From Lachnospiraceae bacterium (GTDB lineage Bacteria > Bacillota > Clostridia > Lachnospirales > Lachnospiraceae): a DNA stretch of 64,000 bases. The notes beneath the pieces are model-generated. The model had not been told where the DNA came from. It did no database searches and was given only the letters and a program-made list of their open reading frames with translations. Below are positions 34,918 to 63,381 of this stretch, in pieces. The stretch's first letter is position 1. Each line of letters begins with the position of its first letter. The stretch covers positions 1 through 64,000 of the forward strand of contig JAFSGE010000055.1 of NCBI GenBank assembly GCA_017434885.1, in the 5' to 3' direction. Made by a program: the position numbers and the translations under genes.

Positions 34918-35094
34918 AGTCCGCCAATAGTCATGTTACTGCCAATCGCAAAACTCAAAGCGTATGCTGTAATAGACACAAACTGATTATAAAAGCTTAT
35001 TAGATTTCTCTTAAAAGGTTTTATCAAAGTTGTGTCTATACAGCATAGCTTTTAGAACAGTTGCGATTGGCAGTAACATTATTGTTTGCGGACT
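34918..35094. repeat. 177-base imperfect inverted repeat between convergent genes
   Basis: The left arm 34918-34982 and the right arm 35030-35094 are inverted copies of about 65 bases each around a 47-base centre. The longest exact block is ATGTTACTGCCAATCGCAA (within 34932-34952), with GTCCGC at the outer ends and TAGACACAA at the inner ends. The right end reaches the stop codon of the ABC gene. It could be a MITE-like element or an unusual long-hairpin terminator; no T-tract follows either arm. Confidence 0.75.
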
Positions 35095-36871
35095 AATTGG
35101 GCAGTACCATCTGCGCCATATGAAGTCTGTAGTAAGCTCCCTTCATGGCGAGAAGTTCATCGACAGTTCCTTCTTCCTTAATTCCGCCGTCATCCACAAC
35201 GAAAATCCGGTCGGCTTTCTGAATGGTAGACAGTCTGTGGGCAATAACGAAAGAAGTGCGCCCCTTAAGCAGTGCTTCGATACCGTCTTGAACCAAAAGT
35301 TCGGTGTTGGTATCAATACTGGAGGTTGCCTCATCCAAAATCAGAATACCGGGATTGGAAACCATGGTTCTTGCAAACGCCAACAGCTGTTTCTGACCGA
35401 TAGAAAGACCGCCGCCACGTTCAGAGAGTACTGTATCGTACCCTTTTTCGAGTTGCATGATAAAATCATGGGCGTGTACCGCTTTTGCAGCAGCAATGAT
35501 TTCTTCATCTGTGGCATCTAATTTTCCGTAACGTATATTGTCTTTAATGGTTCCCGAAAACAAAAAGTTATCCTGTGTCATAATTCCCATCTGACTGCGA
35601 AGACTTTCAATACTTACCTTCTTTACATCATAACCGTCAATACAGACTTTTCCTTTTTGTACATCATAAAAACGGCTGATTAAATTTACGATAGTGGTTT
35701 TTCCTGCGCCGGTAGGTCCTACAAGAGCAATGGTTTCACCGGGTTTAATATCAAAGGATACATCTTCCAGTACATTGATACTATCATCATAGGAAAACGT
35801 CACATGTTCAAAAGTTACATGACCACGGATAGGCGGCATTTCCACAACGTTCTTGGTATCGGAGATTTCTGCTTCGGTGTCCATAATTTCAAACACACGC
35901 TCAGCTGCGGCAAGATTGGTGATAATCTGATTATAAAAATTGCTCAGATTCATAATCGGATTCCAAAACATGCCGATGTAAGTGCCGAAAGCGATAAAAG
36001 TTCCCACGGAAACATTTTCTGCACCTAAAATATAGATTCCCACAAAATACAGAGCCGCCATACCGAATCCCCAACAAAAATCAATGGCAGAGCCTAAGGA
36101 GTCGTTGATGCGTACCGCGCTTACAAAAGCCTTGCGGTGTTCTTCCACCAGACCGGAAAAGGTTTCCTTTGTCTCATCCTCTGCGGTAAAGCTTTGAATA
36201 ATCCTGATACCTGACATATCTTCATGGACAAAGGCGTTTAAGTTGGAAGATTTCTTTCTGAATATCTGCCAGCGCTTATGGGAATAGGTCTGTATCAGCC
36301 ACATGCTGATTGCCATAAAAGGCAGACTGCAAAGGGAAGCCAGTGCCAGGGTGGGATTTTTGACAATCATAATGGCAGCGACAGCCACAACCGTAATAAA
36401 GTCCGGAATTAAAGTGGTTACAAAGTTTCCTAAAACGTCCTTCAGTGAGTTAATATCACCGATGATTCGTGCAAGAATTTTTCCGGTAGGACGGCTGTCA
36501 AAAAACTGAAAATCCAGTGTCTGGATATGGGTGTAAAGCTCCTGACGGATAGTTACCAATATGCTGTTGCACACCTTTGCCATCAGAAACATTCGTATTT
36601 TCATACCGAGAATCATAAGGAGATTCAGCACAAGGGCAATTGCGATCAGTTTGAGAAGTCCGGGCATGTTTGAAGCTGCAATATACCGGTCAATGGCAGT
36701 TTCAATAAAAAGCGGATTTAAAAGAGAAACCGCTACGCAAAAAGCCATGATGATAAGTACAACAAAAATATAAAGTTTATAGGAGAGCAGATAAGAAAAT
36801 AACCTACCCAATGTTTTTAGTTTTCCGGCAGATTGTATCTGCTCATCGTCTTTATAGGAATTAACACTCAT
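35093..36871 (-). CDS. ABC exporter half, catalytic subunit
   Basis: A 592-residue protein with six membrane segments (residues about 30-330) and a nucleotide-binding domain. The start at 36871 is supported by AAAGGAGGG; the frame extends further upstream without a site. Walker A is GPTGAGKT and Walker B ILILDEATSS with the catalytic Glu, but the signature motif is LSIGQ rather than LSGGQ. With the upstream subunit, whose Walker B has Asp, this gives one working and one degenerate ATP site, as in TM287/288, LmrCD or BmrCD multidrug exporters. It overlaps the upstream gene by 11 bases. Confidence 0.85.
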   Translation of the reverse strand: MSVNSYKDDEQIQSAGKLKTLGRLFSYLLSYKLYIFVVLIIMAFCVAVSLLNPLFIETAIDRYIAASNMPGLLKLIAIALVLNLLMILGMKIRMFLMAKVCNSILVTIRQELYTHIQTLDFQFFDSRPTGKILARIIGDINSLKDVLGNFVTTLIPDFITVVAVAAIMIVKNPTLALASLCSLPFMAISMWLIQTYSHKRWQIFRKKSSNLNAFVHEDMSGIRIIQSFTAEDETKETFSGLVEEHRKAFVSAVRINDSLGSAIDFCWGFGMAALYFVGIYILGAENVSVGTFIAFGTYIGMFWNPIMNLSNFYNQIITNLAAAERVFEIMDTEAEISDTKNVVEMPPIRGHVTFEHVTFSYDDSINVLEDVSFDIKPGETIALVGPTGAGKTTIVNLISRFYDVQKGKVCIDGYDVKKVSIESLRSQMGIMTQDNFLFSGTIKDNIRYGKLDATDEEIIAAAKAVHAHDFIMQLEKGYDTVLSERGGGLSIGQKQLLAFARTMVSNPGILILDEATSSIDTNTELLVQDGIEALLKGRTSFVIAHRLSTIQKADRIFVVDDGGIKEEGTVDELLAMKGAYYRLHMAQMVLPN

Positions 36872-38597
36872 GTTGTTCCCTCCTTTCTGTGCCGTACTGT
36901 GCCTGATAGGTTTGATAATACAAGCCCTTTTGTGCAAGCAGGCTTTGGTGTGTTCCCCGTTCCTTGATGGAACCGTTTTCCAGTATAATGATTTCATCGG
37001 CCCTGCAAAGTGCACTGATGCGGTGACCGATAATAATTTTGGTGGTTCCCGCCAGCTTGTCTAAGGTTTCCTGAATCTGCTGTTCCGTTTCCATGTCAAG
37101 AGCGGAAGTAGAGTCGTCAAAGACTAAAATAGGGTCTTTTTTTGCCAGAGCCCTGGCAATGGTAATACGCTGCTTCTGACCGCCGGAGAGTCCCACGCCG
37201 CGCTCGCCGATGACAGTTTCGTATTGTTTATCCATTCTTTCGATAAAACCTTTTGCCTGTGCAGCCTTGGCAGCCTTTTGCACAGCTTTGTCAGAAATCA
37301 GTGCTTTCTTTCCAAGCTTAACGTTTTCCGTGATGGTATCGGAAAACAGGAAAACATCCTGCATAACAAGGGAAACGGCACTTCGAAGCTGTTTCAAAGA
37401 GAGCTTGCGGATATCCACATCATCTAAATATATGGCTCCGTCCGTTACATCATAAAGTCTCTGCAGCAAATAAATCAGAGAGCTCTTTCCGGCACCGGTT
37501 GCACCCATGATACCCAGAGTTTTTCCCGGTTCGATTGTAAAAGAGATATCATGAAGAATTTCATAGCCGTCTGCCTTGTGGAAGGAAACGTTTGCAAATT
37601 CAATTTTTCCTTTTACTTCAGAGAGAATAACAGGCTCATCCGGATTTTTTACACTGGGAACTTCTCTGTAAATTGCCTTTAATTTTTTATTGGAGGCAAT
37701 GGCGGAAGAGAGGCTGTTGGTCAGCCAACCCAGCATTTCCATGGGCCAAACAATGTTCATGGAGTATTCGATAAAAGCAGTCAGAGTACCCAAGGTGATT
37801 TCCCCCTGCATAACCAGCATACCTCCCGATACCAGTACGGAGAGCGGAAGCAGCTTGGTAATTAAGCTGATATAGGGCGAATATTTTACAAATACCTTGG
37901 ATTGTTGCATGTTCAGGTCGTAGTAGCGTTTGTTGTGGGAAAGAAACTTGCTGATTTCGTATTTTTCCCGTGCAAAAGCCTTAACGGTCCGCACACCTGC
38001 CAGATTTTCTTCGGCAACAGTGTTAAGCTGAGCGTTCTCTTCACTGATGGATTCGTACACTGCACCTAATTTGTTTTCCATGACAATGGCAATCAAAGCG
38101 GAAAGTGCCATGCATATTGTAGGAATAATGGCCAGCTTCCAGCTTAAGCTGTACATGCAGAATAAAACTATGGAAGTGTGAACCACAACTTCAATCATCA
38201 GCATACCTACAAAAGTAAGTCCGTCCCAGATGCGGTCAATGTCATCCTTGATACGGGACATCAGCTCACCGGTTCCGGTGCGGTCAAAGAAGTCGGCACT
38301 TAGGGACTGGATGTGGTCAAAAAGGTTTTTACGCATCTCGCCCATGATTTTTGCACCGGCAACGTCAAAGGTGTATTCCTTGGTGTATTGGAAGATACAA
38401 CGTCCGATACCTATACACAGGATACCTGCAAGTAAGTATTTTAGTTTGTGTATTTCACCGCCTGTAATAACATCATCAACGATGTGTCTGGTCAGCTGCG
38501 GTGAGAGCATATCAAGAGATACGCTGATAAGCAGTGAGCAGATTGCCAACAGATAGGCCAATTTGTGTTCCCATATGTAAGATGATAATTTTTTCAT
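36861..38597 (-). CDS. ABC exporter half with degenerate Walker B
   Basis: A 578-residue half-transporter. Six membrane segments come first (YLLAICSLLISVSLDML, then others to about 300). The ATPase domain has Walker A GATGAGKSS, a canonical LSGGQ, and Walker B ILVFDDSTSALD, where the catalytic Glu is Asp. That change marks the non-catalytic partner of heterodimeric exporters. AGGAGGG precedes ATG 38597. The gene follows a leader ORF and terminator (38623-38828), so its expression is likely set by attenuation. Confidence 0.87.
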   Translation of the reverse strand: MKKLSSYIWEHKLAYLLAICSLLISVSLDMLSPQLTRHIVDDVITGGEIHKLKYLLAGILCIGIGRCIFQYTKEYTFDVAGAKIMGEMRKNLFDHIQSLSADFFDRTGTGELMSRIKDDIDRIWDGLTFVGMLMIEVVVHTSIVLFCMYSLSWKLAIIPTICMALSALIAIVMENKLGAVYESISEENAQLNTVAEENLAGVRTVKAFAREKYEISKFLSHNKRYYDLNMQQSKVFVKYSPYISLITKLLPLSVLVSGGMLVMQGEITLGTLTAFIEYSMNIVWPMEMLGWLTNSLSSAIASNKKLKAIYREVPSVKNPDEPVILSEVKGKIEFANVSFHKADGYEILHDISFTIEPGKTLGIMGATGAGKSSLIYLLQRLYDVTDGAIYLDDVDIRKLSLKQLRSAVSLVMQDVFLFSDTITENVKLGKKALISDKAVQKAAKAAQAKGFIERMDKQYETVIGERGVGLSGGQKQRITIARALAKKDPILVFDDSTSALDMETEQQIQETLDKLAGTTKIIIGHRISALCRADEIIILENGSIKERGTHQSLLAQKGLYYQTYQAQYGTERREQHEC

Positions 38598-38622
38598 GTA
38601 AGTCCCTCCTCAAAAAAAGTAC

Positions 38623-38655
38623 AAAAAAGCTGCCACGGAATTACCATGACAGCTT
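38623..38655 (-). terminator. attenuator terminator in the ABC exporter leader
   Basis: On the minus strand AAGCTGTCATGG (38655-38644) pairs with CCGTGGCAGCTT (38638-38627), 12 bp with two G-U pairs around TAATT, followed by six T in total. It lies between the leader ORF and the exporter genes, before their ribosome site. An extra small stem, AGCGCA (38674-38679) with TGCGCT (38695-38700), lies upstream. Confidence 0.75.
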
Positions 38656-38714
38656 CTTAGAGTCTGTGTCGCCAGCGCAGGATATAAATGTACATGCGCT
38701 ATTTACCCTGTTTA

Positions 38715-38828
38715 TCAAAAAGACATAAGTAAGGGAGGTAATTTCGTATTATTATCAGCTATGAAGTTGTGTGACAAAGTATGAATGCCATTGATTCTGA
38801 ATAAGTTATTATGAATCATATTCAACAT
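38715..38828 (-). CDS. 37-residue leader peptide of the ABC exporter operon
   Basis: ATG at 38828 is preceded by AAAGGAGG with 8-base spacing, one of the best ribosome sites in the window. The ORF begins MLNMIHNNLF and ends KLPPLLMSF before TGA at 38715. It has no similarity that I recognise. It sits between a promoter (38877-38905) and a strong terminator (38623-38655) ahead of two ABC exporter genes. This matches the design of bmrB, whose translation controls B. subtilis bmrCD. The Pro-Pro near the end could stall ribosomes. Confidence 0.65.
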   Translation of the reverse strand: MLNMIHNNLFRINGIHTLSHNFIADNNTKLPPLLMSF

Positions 38829-38876
38829 AGTGTTTACCTCCTTTCTTAGGTGCTTGTGTTTTTAGTGACTGTATCT

Positions 38877-38905
38877 AACATACGTCAGCTTTGTGCATTT
38901 GTCAA
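38877..38905 (-). promoter_or_regulatory. promoter of the leader-ABC exporter operon
   Basis: Reading on the minus strand, TTGACA (38905-38900), 17 bases and TATGTT (38882-38877). Transcription would start near 38870 and give a leader of about 270 bases before the first exporter gene. The 432-base gap 38598-39029 holds only this leader and the region before the CDF gene. Confidence 0.6.
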
Positions 38906-39029: not shown

Positions 39030-40205
39030 ATGGTATCTTTACTGGCAAAATTATTGATAAAAGATTATGAAGACACATCAAATACAAGAGTAAGACAGTC
39101 CTATGGTATGCTCTGCGGGGCAGTGGGAATTTTTTTGAATATCCTGCTGTTTGCAGGCAAGGCACTGGCAGGTTTTTTCAGTGGTTCCATTGCCATTACG
39201 GCGGATGCGTTTAACAATTTATCTGATGCAGGTTCATCGGTTGTGACACTGGCAGGATTTAAGATGGCAGGACAAAAGCCGGACAGTGACCACCCCTTTG
39301 GGCACGGCAGAATTGAGTATGTTTCGGGTCTTGTGGTGGCGATGCTGATTCTGTTGATGGCATTTGAGTTGTTAAAGACTTCTGTCGGAAAAATTATTCA
39401 CCCAACACAGGTATCAGCCAGTCCGTTAATTATCGCAATTCTTGCGGTATCTATTCTGGTGAAATGTTATATGGCATTTTATAATGGTGCAATCAGCAAA
39501 AAGATTAACAGTGCCGCTATGGATGCTACCGCAAAGGACAGCTTAAGTGATACCATATCTACCTTTGCGGTACTGGGAAGCACTTTGCTTGCACAGGCAA
39601 CAGGGCTTATGATAGACGGATACTGCGGTGTACTTGTTGCGCTGTTTGTTTTCTGGGCAGGAATTGAAGCCGGAAAGGAAACTATAAGTCCTCTTTTGGG
39701 GCAGCCGCCGGAGCCGGAGTTCGTGGAGCGGATTGAGCAGATTATTATGGAATATCAGGAGCAGGGAGTTATCGGTATTCATGATTTGGTGGTACATAAT
39801 TACGGACCGGGAAGAGTGATGCTTTCCGTTCATGTGGAGGTTCCCTCAAGCGGTGATATTTTGGCACTGCATGATATGGTGGATACCATAGAGCACAGAC
39901 TGGCAAAGGAACTGAACTGTAGTGCGGTGATTCACATGGATCCGGTATGTGTAGATGATGAACTGACCAATGCCATTAAAGAGAAAGTGGCAGTGATTGT
40001 GGAAGCCATGGAAGGGGAAGTGTCTTTTCATGATTTCAGAATTGTCAGCGGACCGACTCATACCAATCTGATTTTTGATGTGGTAGTGCCTTACAACTAT
40101 GTGATGACAGACAGTGAGATAGAAACATACATACAGGAAAAAGTGAAAGAAATCGATGAGAATTATTTTACCGTAGTTGAGGTCGATAAGGCTTATTGCG
40201 GGTAA
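39030..40205 (+). CDS. cation diffusion facilitator transporter
   Basis: A 391-residue protein with six membrane segments (about residues 28-200). Metal-site motifs are ITADAFNNLSDAG in segment 2, DHPFGHGRIEY after it, and SDTISTFAVL in segment 5. It exports divalent metals (Zn, Fe or Mn) by proton exchange; the NNLSD form does not fix the metal. The C-terminal domain is longer than usual, with two ferredoxin-like units (about 215-300 and 310-391). It is divergent from the exporter operon. Confidence 0.88.
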   Translation: MVSLLAKLLIKDYEDTSNTRVRQSYGMLCGAVGIFLNILLFAGKALAGFFSGSIAITADAFNNLSDAGSSVVTLAGFKMAGQKPDSDHPFGHGRIEYVSGLVVAMLILLMAFELLKTSVGKIIHPTQVSASPLIIAILAVSILVKCYMAFYNGAISKKINSAAMDATAKDSLSDTISTFAVLGSTLLAQATGLMIDGYCGVLVALFVFWAGIEAGKETISPLLGQPPEPEFVERIEQIIMEYQEQGVIGIHDLVVHNYGPGRVMLSVHVEVPSSGDILALHDMVDTIEHRLAKELNCSAVIHMDPVCVDDELTNAIKEKVAVIVEAMEGEVSFHDFRIVSGPTHTNLIFDVVVPYNYVMTDSEIETYIQEKVKEIDENYFTVVEVDKAYCG

Positions 40206-62974: not shown

Positions 62975-63319
62975 GGGTTAGTAAAGGTTTCGACAGGGGC
63001 CTTGCAGCCGGAGAAGCTATCCGCAGGCGATGCGTCAAATCGCAAAACTAAAAATAAACGCTGAAGATAATTTAGCATACGCTGCCTAATGGCAGCTGTC
63101 CGACTTAGTGCACCTACACATTAAGACCCGGGCATCGACTATGTAGGAAACGACACGGGTTAAGCTTTGCACCCGTGGGCGTATTATGAAGCTACTAAAC
63201 AAATCGGGGTGTCAGTTTCCCGGTTTGGGAGGGAATGAGGGCAACCGAAACAATTGACTATGATAGTAGAAGGACGGGGAATGGGTCTTTGGACGCGGGT
63301 TCGACTCCCGCCTAATCCA
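62975..63319 (+). ncRNA. ssrA: transfer-messenger RNA
   Basis: The 5' end GGGTTAG (62975) pairs with CTAATCC at 63312-63318 as the acceptor stem; one G-T pair. TTTCGACAGGGGC follows at the 5' side and GGTTCGACTCCCGCC at the 3' side form the T-arm half. The tag frame begins GCA at 63042 and stops TAA at 63087-63089, encoding AKLKINAEDNLAYAA. The CCA is not fully encoded. The 580-base region 62876-63456 holds only this RNA and the hairpin that follows. Confidence 0.95.
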
Positions 63320-63381
63320 TTTGAACGCGAAGTGACGAACACCGTTCGAAGATGTTCGGATACAGGTCATTTTTTATGGTA

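What the first reader, a model, noticed from the sequence alone, without database searches (positions are those of the whole stretch)
38597..38905. Leader peptide plus terminator controlling a heterodimeric ABC exporter
Seen: promoter, a 37-codon ORF with AAAGGAGG, a 12-bp terminator with T-run, then two ABC half-transporters. One has Walker B FDDS, the other the signature LSIGQ. Known: heterodimeric drug exporters (BmrCD, TM287/288) share these asymmetries, and bmrCD is controlled by translation of leader bmrB with transcription attenuation. Inferred: a drug that stalls ribosomes on this unfamiliar leader would prevent the terminator and switch on export. The leader sequence may be a new stalling peptide.
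Basis: partly seen in the sequence, partly recalled or inferred. Interest (0 to 1): 0.75.

Follow-up and report, generated by a model that had tools for sequence, protein, structure and literature searches.

The report
Start-site ribosome sensor before drug exporter
In front of a two-part membrane pump, a short RNA stretch appears to feel whether a ribosome is stuck at the start of a tiny dummy gene and, if so, lets the pump genes be copied; many related gut bacteria carry the same layout, although the dummy peptide itself is not conserved.

Summary
The anatomy is real: promoter, 37-codon leader ORF with a strong ribosome-binding site (SD), intrinsic terminator, then a heterodimeric ABC exporter. 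Of 92 upstream regions of homologues, 88 have an SD-led short ORF, as do 12 of 13 orthologues from a wider search, down to 52% identity. Across lineages the peptide is not conserved. Three RNA segments are: (1) the leader's own SD; (2) its complement inside the ORF, read in all three frames (27/49/5 of 81; at least 9 frame changes on the tree); (3) a terminator 5' arm/loop also complementary to (2). Native partners fit better than swapped ones (z about -10 for both helices). Folding predicts 1:2 with the SD free and 2:3, an antiterminator, when the SD is covered, though not in every locus. Best reading: a peptide-blind attenuator sensing ribosomes held at the leader start. It works like vmlR and cplR; its target is like bmrCD; it matches neither architecture. 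Drug induction is untested.

The parts
38877..38905 (-). sigma-70-type promoter, TTGACA - 17 nt - TATGTT
   Evidence: relatives: best match at least 10 of 12 in 57 of 80
38834..38844 (-). Segment 1: leader Shine-Dalgarno region AAAGGAGGTAA
   Evidence: sequence; pairs with segment 2 in the lowest-energy fold
38715..38828 (-). leader ORF, 37 codons, peptide not conserved across lineages
   Evidence: SD-led ORF in 88 of 92 upstream regions
38731..38744 (-). Segment 2: AAATTACCTCCCTT inside the leader ORF, complementary to segment 1 and to segment 3
   Evidence: frame varies between lineages
38624..38658 (-). intrinsic terminator hairpin followed by T-runs
   Evidence: 15 pairs, 6 G-C; -19.5 kcal/mol
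38639..38645 (-). Segment 3: GGTAATT in the terminator 5' arm and loop, complementary to AATTACC of segment 2
   Evidence: duplex -7.0 kcal/mol in the window
36861..38597 (-). ABC half-transporter 1 (degenerate Walker B FDDS, intact LSGGQ)
35093..36871 (-). ABC half-transporter 2 (intact LDEATS, degenerate signature LSIGQ)

Best explanation
A ribosome-mediated transcription attenuator that reads occupancy of the leader's start site. Segment 1 (leader SD) pairs with segment 2 (anti-SD inside the ORF) when no ribosome holds the SD; the terminator then forms and the exporter stays off. A ribosome moving through the ORF covers segment 2 when it arrives there, so the terminator again forms. A ribosome held at the start codon (for example by a drug that stalls initiation or the first steps) masks segment 1 but not segment 2. 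Segment 2 then pairs with segment 3, the 5' arm/loop of the terminator, and RNA polymerase reads through into the two exporter genes. Shown: the parts, their conservation, the coupled changes of the segments and the switch in folding calculations. Inferred: transcription start, translation of the ORF, kinetics, and the inducing signal (ribosome-targeting drugs, by analogy with bmrCD, vmlR and cplR). The peptide sequence appears irrelevant; the ORF serves as track and spacer.
For: 88 of 92 upstream regions have an SD-led short ORF. Segment 2 occurs in three frames (27/49/5 of 81), with at least 9 frame changes on a FastTree of half-transporter 1. Duplex energies, n=82: 1:2 native -12.7, swapped between loci -11.1, shuffled -5.6; 2:3 native -11.7, swapped -9.05, shuffled -6.5; 0 of 2000 permutations reach native for either. 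Segment 2 shows no coupling with the exporter's own SD (87 loci, z 0.5). With the SD blocked, 2:3 rises from a mean of 1.1 to 6.6 bp; in controls it reaches 1.2 (segment 3 shuffled), 3.7 (swapped) and 1.2 (segment 2 shuffled) (n=81). Predicted 2:3 pairing is highest with the P site at codons 1-3 and falls over codons 4-8. L144-L146 changed all three segments together (SD GCGAGGTAAA, segment 2 TTTACCTCG, terminator AGGTAAAG). An exact complement of at least 7 nt to the leader's own SD inside the ORF: 38 of 92 regions here (82 with a leader under that test), 0 of 367 control genes (50 with a leader). Of 17 ABC_membrane genes in the genome only this one had such a leader by script.
Against: In the window the 2:3 duplex is short (7 bp, -7.0 kcal/mol) against a -19.5 kcal/mol terminator, so antitermination must be kinetic. 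With the full hairpin present the terminator usually wins in the calculation even with the SD blocked (mean formed fraction 0.94 free, 0.88 blocked). With the SD blocked, 2:3 reaches 5 bp in only 49 of 81 loci; it rises by more than 1 bp in 57 and falls in 1. Swapped terminator arms still give a rise in 48 of 81 and 5 bp in 26, because most loci share the motif. In 5 of 81, 2:3 is already at least 5 bp with no ribosome, and 11 of 81 show it at codon 15. Among 13 distant loci with a leader, 2:3 is no better than shuffled in L138, L140, L142 and L147. L090 (same upstream as L137) and L093 have no convincing leader; segments are poor in L016, L028 and L030. Segment 2 was located by a consensus, the sequences are related, and an independent-pairs test of one SD/segment 2 base has only 4 pairs (2 agree, 0 disagree, 2 do not differ; p 0.5). 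SD masking at codons 1-3 is an assumption of the model.
Confidence: 0.75

Rival explanations
1. Drug-specific nascent-peptide arrest: the leader peptide itself stalls the drug-bound ribosome at a defined codon, as in ErmCL-type leaders.
For: Leader ORF and terminator are present; some drugs stall ribosomes in a sequence-dependent way (review PMC5418344, passages); within single clades leader length and parts of the peptide are alike.
Against: I saw no peptide motif common to the 88 leaders (by eye). The shared nucleotide block is read in three frames.
Confidence: 0.08
2. Amino-acid starvation attenuator of the trp type: scarce charged tRNA stalls the ribosome at runs of one codon.
For: Same 1:2/2:3/3:4 logic as trp (recalled).
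Against: No residue stands out over 81 leaders (largest Asn 9.1%, Trp 0.5%). The downstream genes are exporter halves, not a biosynthetic operon.
Confidence: 0.03
3. RNA-only element (riboswitch or protein-binding leader) in which the ORF is accidental.
For: The conserved features are RNA segments; Rfam had no match above its cut-offs at the leader.
Against: Over the stretch from start codon to segment 2 the other two frames are open in only 12 and 4 of 81 loci, and shuffled sequence is open with a mean probability of 0.18; the ORF frame is open in all 81, but that frame and its SD were search criteria. No large conserved aptamer was seen by eye in the 36 regions printed.
Confidence: 0.06
4. 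Translation attenuation: segment 2 regulates by hiding the exporter's own SD.
For: CCTCC could pair with the GGAGGG before the exporter start (sequence).
Against: No coupling between segment 2 and the exporter SD across 87 loci (native -7.89, swapped -7.99, z 0.5).
Confidence: 0.03
5. Plain insulating terminator plus a non-regulatory small gene.
For: No expression data were available.
Against: The coupled changes of SD, segment 2 and terminator and their absence at control genes need an explanation.
Confidence: 0.05

Closest known systems
bmrB-bmrCD of Bacillus subtilis (PMC4191407; abstract, passages and section 15 read)
   Same: Leader ORF plus terminator upstream of a heterodimeric ABC exporter; terminator, antiterminator and anti-antiterminator proposed; translation of the leader needed for induction by lincomycin.
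   Different: There the terminator lies inside the 53-amino-acid bmrB ORF, and the authors leave the role of the anti-antiterminator unclear. Here the terminator lies beyond the ORF and the proposed anti-antiterminator is the leader SD paired with its own coding sequence.
vmlR attenuator of Bacillus subtilis (PMC9226507; passages read)
   Same: A ribosome stalled at initiation on a leader ORF blocks an anti-antiterminator, so an antiterminator forms.
   Different: vmlR has a Met-Ile-Asn uORF inside a local hairpin, with its SD in a single-stranded region, and controls an ABCF factor. Here the ORF is long, the SD itself is a strand of the anti-antiterminator, and the genes are ABC exporter halves.
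cplR leader of Clostridioides difficile (PMC10201436; passages read)
   Same: uORF, terminator and antiterminator; a figure legend names anti-SD elements in cplR and Listeria lmo0919; tested with retapamulin and lincomycin.
   Different: Met-Arg-Ile uORF with consensus MR[I/M] and an ABCF target; the passages read do not describe an anti-SD inside a long, frame-free ORF.
hflXr / rli80 of Listeria (PMC6310831; passages read)
   Same: 14-codon ORF overlapping an anti-antiterminator; lincomycin-dependent read-through.
   Different: Carries the RLR motif linked to macrolide leaders; a different resistance gene.
toiL-topAI of E. coli (PMC12121999; passages read)
   Same: uORF sensing several antibiotic classes, including ribosomes stalled at its start by tetracycline.
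   Different: Controls translation and Rho-dependent termination of a toxin-antitoxin operon.
ABC-leader upstream of a multidrug export operon in lactobacilli (PMC2965389; passages read)
   Same: Predicted attenuator before a multidrug exporter.
   Different: No leader-ORF mechanism given for it in the passages read; different lineage.

Membership tests
ribosome-mediated transcription attenuators of resistance genes | short ORF with its own SD between promoter and gene | tested here: met
   88 of 92 upstream regions
ribosome-mediated transcription attenuators of resistance genes | intrinsic terminator between ORF start and gene | tested here: met
   found by script in 82 of 88 loci, very weak in L117 and L112
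ribosome-mediated transcription attenuators of resistance genes | mutually exclusive anti-antiterminator, antiterminator and terminator | tested here: met
   in silico only; 2:3 of at least 5 bp in 49 of 81 with SD blocked, 6.0 bp in the window
ribosome-mediated transcription attenuators of resistance genes | read-through induced by ribosome-targeting drugs and dependent on leader translation | not testable with these tools
   no expression data or bench
bmrB-bmrCD attenuator | terminator inside the leader coding sequence | tested here: not met
   56 nt lie between the leader stop codon and the terminator stem; compared with PMC4191407
bmrB-bmrCD attenuator | sequence relationship of leader to bmrB | not tested
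vmlR/cplR-type uORF | three-residue uORF with a consensus peptide, ABCF target | tested here: not met
   37 codons; target is ABC_membrane plus ABC_tran
vmlR/cplR-type uORF | uORF start region part of, or enclosed by, an anti-antiterminator | tested here: met
   in silico:
nascent-peptide arrest leaders (ErmCL type) | conserved arrest peptide in one frame | tested here: not met
   three frames, at least 9 changes
heterodimeric ABC exporters (TM287/288, BmrCD) | one degenerate and one canonical ATP site, shared between two adjacent genes | tested here: met
   half 1: DD[S/C/A] Walker B pattern and LSGGQ in 88 of 88; half 2: LS[VIA]GQ in 80 of 85 (LSNGQ in 1, no match in 4) and LDEATS in 60 of 85 (25 not matched by the pattern); among the 60 chains shown per search, TM_0288 (both halves) and YheH (half 2)
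any Rfam family | match above gathering score at the leader | tested here: not met
   window and 16 related loci

The most novel reading that the evidence does not exclude
A family of peptide-blind attenuators in Lachnospiraceae and relatives in which the leader's own Shine-Dalgarno sequence is the switch strand. Its complement lies inside the leader's coding region in any reading frame, so the device measures only whether a ribosome is held on the start site, whatever drug or defect holds it there.
Probability: 0.55. Interest if true: 0.72.

Novelty: new variant of a known kind. Interest (0 to 1): 0.62.

Why it matters
It gives a concrete, sequence-level model for how gut Lachnospiraceae may switch on a multidrug-type ABC exporter when ribosomes are blocked, and shows a leader ORF that stays open while its peptide drifts and its key motif changes frame. 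A search for conserved leader peptides would be expected to miss it. The predicted response, on for ribosomes held at codons 1-3 and off for later positions, separates it from peptide-arrest leaders and can be tested directly with start-stalling versus late-stalling inhibitors.

Tried and rejected
Peptide motif, by eye over the 88 leaders: none common to them; rejected as the main mechanism. Translation attenuation through the exporter's own SD: tested, no coupling. Known RNA family: none above cut-off. Anti-phage defence link: PADLOC gives only hits to mad3, mad8, PtuA and a dCTPase model, read as ATPase-level similarity; not pursued. The same element elsewhere: fixed patterns over 299 genomes of the family (16 with a match), 397 of the family (1 with a match) and 37 of the genus (0). 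In the own genome one search hit only this locus; L121 shows the same leader start as L061; the other hits were not examined. L135 lies upstream of an orthologous exporter. The patterns do not fit even the window (its gap is 87 nt, its letters differ), so they say little; absence elsewhere is not shown. Novelty searches: (open-licence PMC papers only; the listings of 27, 29, 44, 52 and 66 were cut short) showed no description of this element; Dar et al. 2016 (term-seq) was not held, so what I say of it comes from a review. Whether bmrB has the same design could not be checked: the control genomes gave no loci.

Data handling: of 118 loci, L001-L008 were left out as copies of places; of the remaining 110, 106 matched from within the first 7 residues; removing identical upstream ends left 92. 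L033 (runs of N), L071 and L111 (contig ends) and L038 (38% identical paralogue) had no leader ORF by the script and were dropped, leaving 88, which still include L090 and L093 without a convincing leader. Six had no terminator found by the script (L067, L068, L076, L092, L093, L102; L102 shows a hairpin with a short T-run by eye), leaving 82. L090 was then dropped for a poor segment 2, leaving 81. For L117 and L112 the script took weak hairpins (-0.6 and -4.5 kcal/mol); they were kept. Of the 14 genomes matched one is the window's own; of the 13 others L136 and L137 repeat the exporters of L089 and L090, and L137 has no leader.

Full report
What is there. On the minus strand of the window a promoter-like pair TTGACA-17-TATGTT (38905..38877) precedes a 37-codon ORF (38828..38715) whose AAAGGAGG ends 8 nt before the ATG. 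A hairpin with T-runs follows (38658..38624), then two overlapping ABC half-transporter genes (38597..36861 and 36871..35093). Half 1 has Walker B FDDS with an intact LSGGQ; half 2 has LDEATS with the degenerate signature LSIGQ. Both carry ABC_membrane and ABC_tran domains. Among the 60 solved chains shown per search, headed by eukaryotic ABCB exporters, are the bacterial half-transporters TM_0288 (both halves) and YheH (half 2).

What is conserved. A scan of the genome-contig collection with half-transporter 1 gave 173 related stretches, of which the 80 best were kept. In the window's genus 26 of 37 genomes have a match of 70% identity or more, one of them a fragment. Of 92 non-identical upstream regions, 88 have an SD-led ORF of 15-75 codons. 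The four without are one region with runs of N, two contig ends and one paralogue; among the 88, L090 and L093 have the ends of other genes there and no convincing leader. Half 2 follows in 85 of 86 loci with room for it; a DD[S/C/A] Walker B pattern and LSGGQ occur in half 1 of 88 of 88. Across lineages the leader peptides share no motif that I could see, though within single clades they are alike. What recurs is a nucleotide block near AAATTACCTCC inside the ORF, in frame 0 in 27, frame 1 in 49 and frame 2 in 5 of the 81 loci with at most 3 mismatches. On a FastTree of half-transporter 1 the frame changes at least 9 times. The frame depends on the chosen start, and L097/L098 have two possible starts.

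Why that block is conserved. It is the complement of the leader's own SD region (GGAGGTAATTT) and, at the same time, of a segment in the 5' arm and loop of the terminator (GGTAATTT and variants). Duplex energies over 82 loci: SD with block, native mean -12.7, partners swapped between loci -11.1, block shuffled -5.6; block with terminator 5' part, native -11.7, swapped -9.05, shuffled -6.5; in neither case did any of 2000 permutations reach the native mean. The exporter's own SD shows no such coupling (87 loci, z 0.5). An exact complement of 7 nt or more to the leader SD inside the ORF was found in 38 of 92 regions here (82 of them with a leader under that stricter test) and in 0 of 367 control genes of the same loci (50 of them with a leader). 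Among 17 ABC_membrane genes of the window's genome only this one had such a leader by script.

How far it reaches. A search of 295 genomes of the order matched 14, the window's own among them, two from another family. Of the 13 others all but L137 have a leader ORF; L136 and L137 repeat L089 and L090. In the 12 with a leader plus L135 the SD-to-block helix is stronger than with shuffled ORFs (at most 3 of 200 shuffles as good, 17 in L143). In L144-L146 all three segments changed together: SD GCGAGGTAAA, block TTTACCTCG, terminator AGGTAAAG. The block-to-terminator pairing is strong there and in L135 and L139 (at most 4 of 200 shuffles as good), moderate in L136, L141, L143 and L148 (13-17), and no better than shuffled in L138, L140, L142 and L147 (77-173).

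How it probably works. Folding of the leader up to the point before the terminator's 3' arm, 81 loci: with the SD free, SD:block has a mean of 8.1 paired bases and block:terminator 1.1; with the SD masked, block:terminator has 6.6. Controls for the masked case: shuffled terminator arm 1.2, swapped arm 3.7, shuffled block 1.2. It rises by more than 1 bp in 57 of 81 and falls in 1; with swapped arms it still rises in 48, with shuffled arms in 17, with a shuffled block in 10. With a ribosome footprint placed codon by codon, mean block:terminator pairing is about 6.5 bp with the P site at codons 1-3 (SD assumed held), 3.8 at codon 4, 2.4 at codon 5 and 1.2 at codon 8, with a small second rise to 1.8 at codon 15; in the window it drops from 5.8 to 0.1 bp between codons 3 and 4. 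The predicted logic: free SD or freely moving ribosomes, terminator; a ribosome held on the start site, antiterminator and read-through. Transcription, translation and drug response are inferred; nothing here measures them.

Weak points. In the window the antiterminator helix is short (7 bp, -7.0 kcal/mol) next to a -19.5 kcal/mol terminator, and once the whole hairpin is present the terminator wins in most calculations (mean fraction 0.94 free, 0.88 blocked), so the switch must act while RNA polymerase passes. In 32 of 81 loci the masked case gives under 5 bp of block:terminator pairing, and in 5 of 81 it is already at least 5 bp with no ribosome. The block was located by consensus, and the sequences are related; a phylogenetically independent-pairs test of one SD/block base has only 4 pairs, 2 agreeing, 0 disagreeing and 2 not differing. 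The argument therefore rests on the permutation results, the frame changes, the specificity controls and the triple changes in distant lineages.

Known relatives of the mechanism. bmrCD of B. subtilis is a heterodimeric exporter behind a leader with terminator, antiterminator and anti-antiterminator, needing leader translation for lincomycin induction; there the terminator lies inside bmrB (PMC4191407; abstract, passages and section 15). In vmlR a stalled initiating ribosome prevents an anti-antiterminator (PMC9226507, passages). In cplR a Met-Arg-Ile uORF with a noted anti-SD element does similar work (PMC10201436, passages). toiL of E. coli senses start stalls by tetracycline (PMC12121999, passages). 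The present element works like these but matches none in architecture: long ORF, SD as the switch strand, anti-SD inside the coding region in any frame, two exporter halves as target. It is filed as a new variant of ribosome-mediated transcription attenuation. Within the open-licence library the searches did not show it described; several listings were capped and subscription papers were not visible.

Noticed in passing
window 39030-40205 (+): A cation-diffusion-facilitator transporter gene is divergent from the leader; in some relatives (for example L077, L098, L108, L138) what looks like the end of a similar gene lies upstream of the leader in the same direction as the exporter, judged by eye from short ends.
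   Followed up: no
L112, about 170 to 130 nt upstream of the exporter start: In a Treponema MAG with a 64% identical exporter, the in-ORF complement is followed right after the stop codon by an exact 12-nt complement (GTGCAGTTACCT / AGGTAACTGCAC), a shorter version of the switch or a different device.
   Followed up: no
L137 and L090, 550-600 nt upstream of the exporter start: An exporter orthologue with no convincing leader ORF; the end of what looks like a glycosidase-type gene (by eye) runs almost to a bare hairpin whose stem resembles the attenuator terminators of its relatives.
   Followed up: partly
L147 and L148, upstream of the exporter: Two terminator-like hairpins in tandem follow the leader (by eye).
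   Followed up: no
L101, L109, L114, L116, L102, between leader stop and terminator: A further conserved stretch (about GTCGGTAAATAGATATGCTTGGCTTTTA) in this clade, not explained by the three segments.
   Followed up: no
window 62975-63322 (+): tmRNA gene (Rfam RF00023).
   Followed up: no
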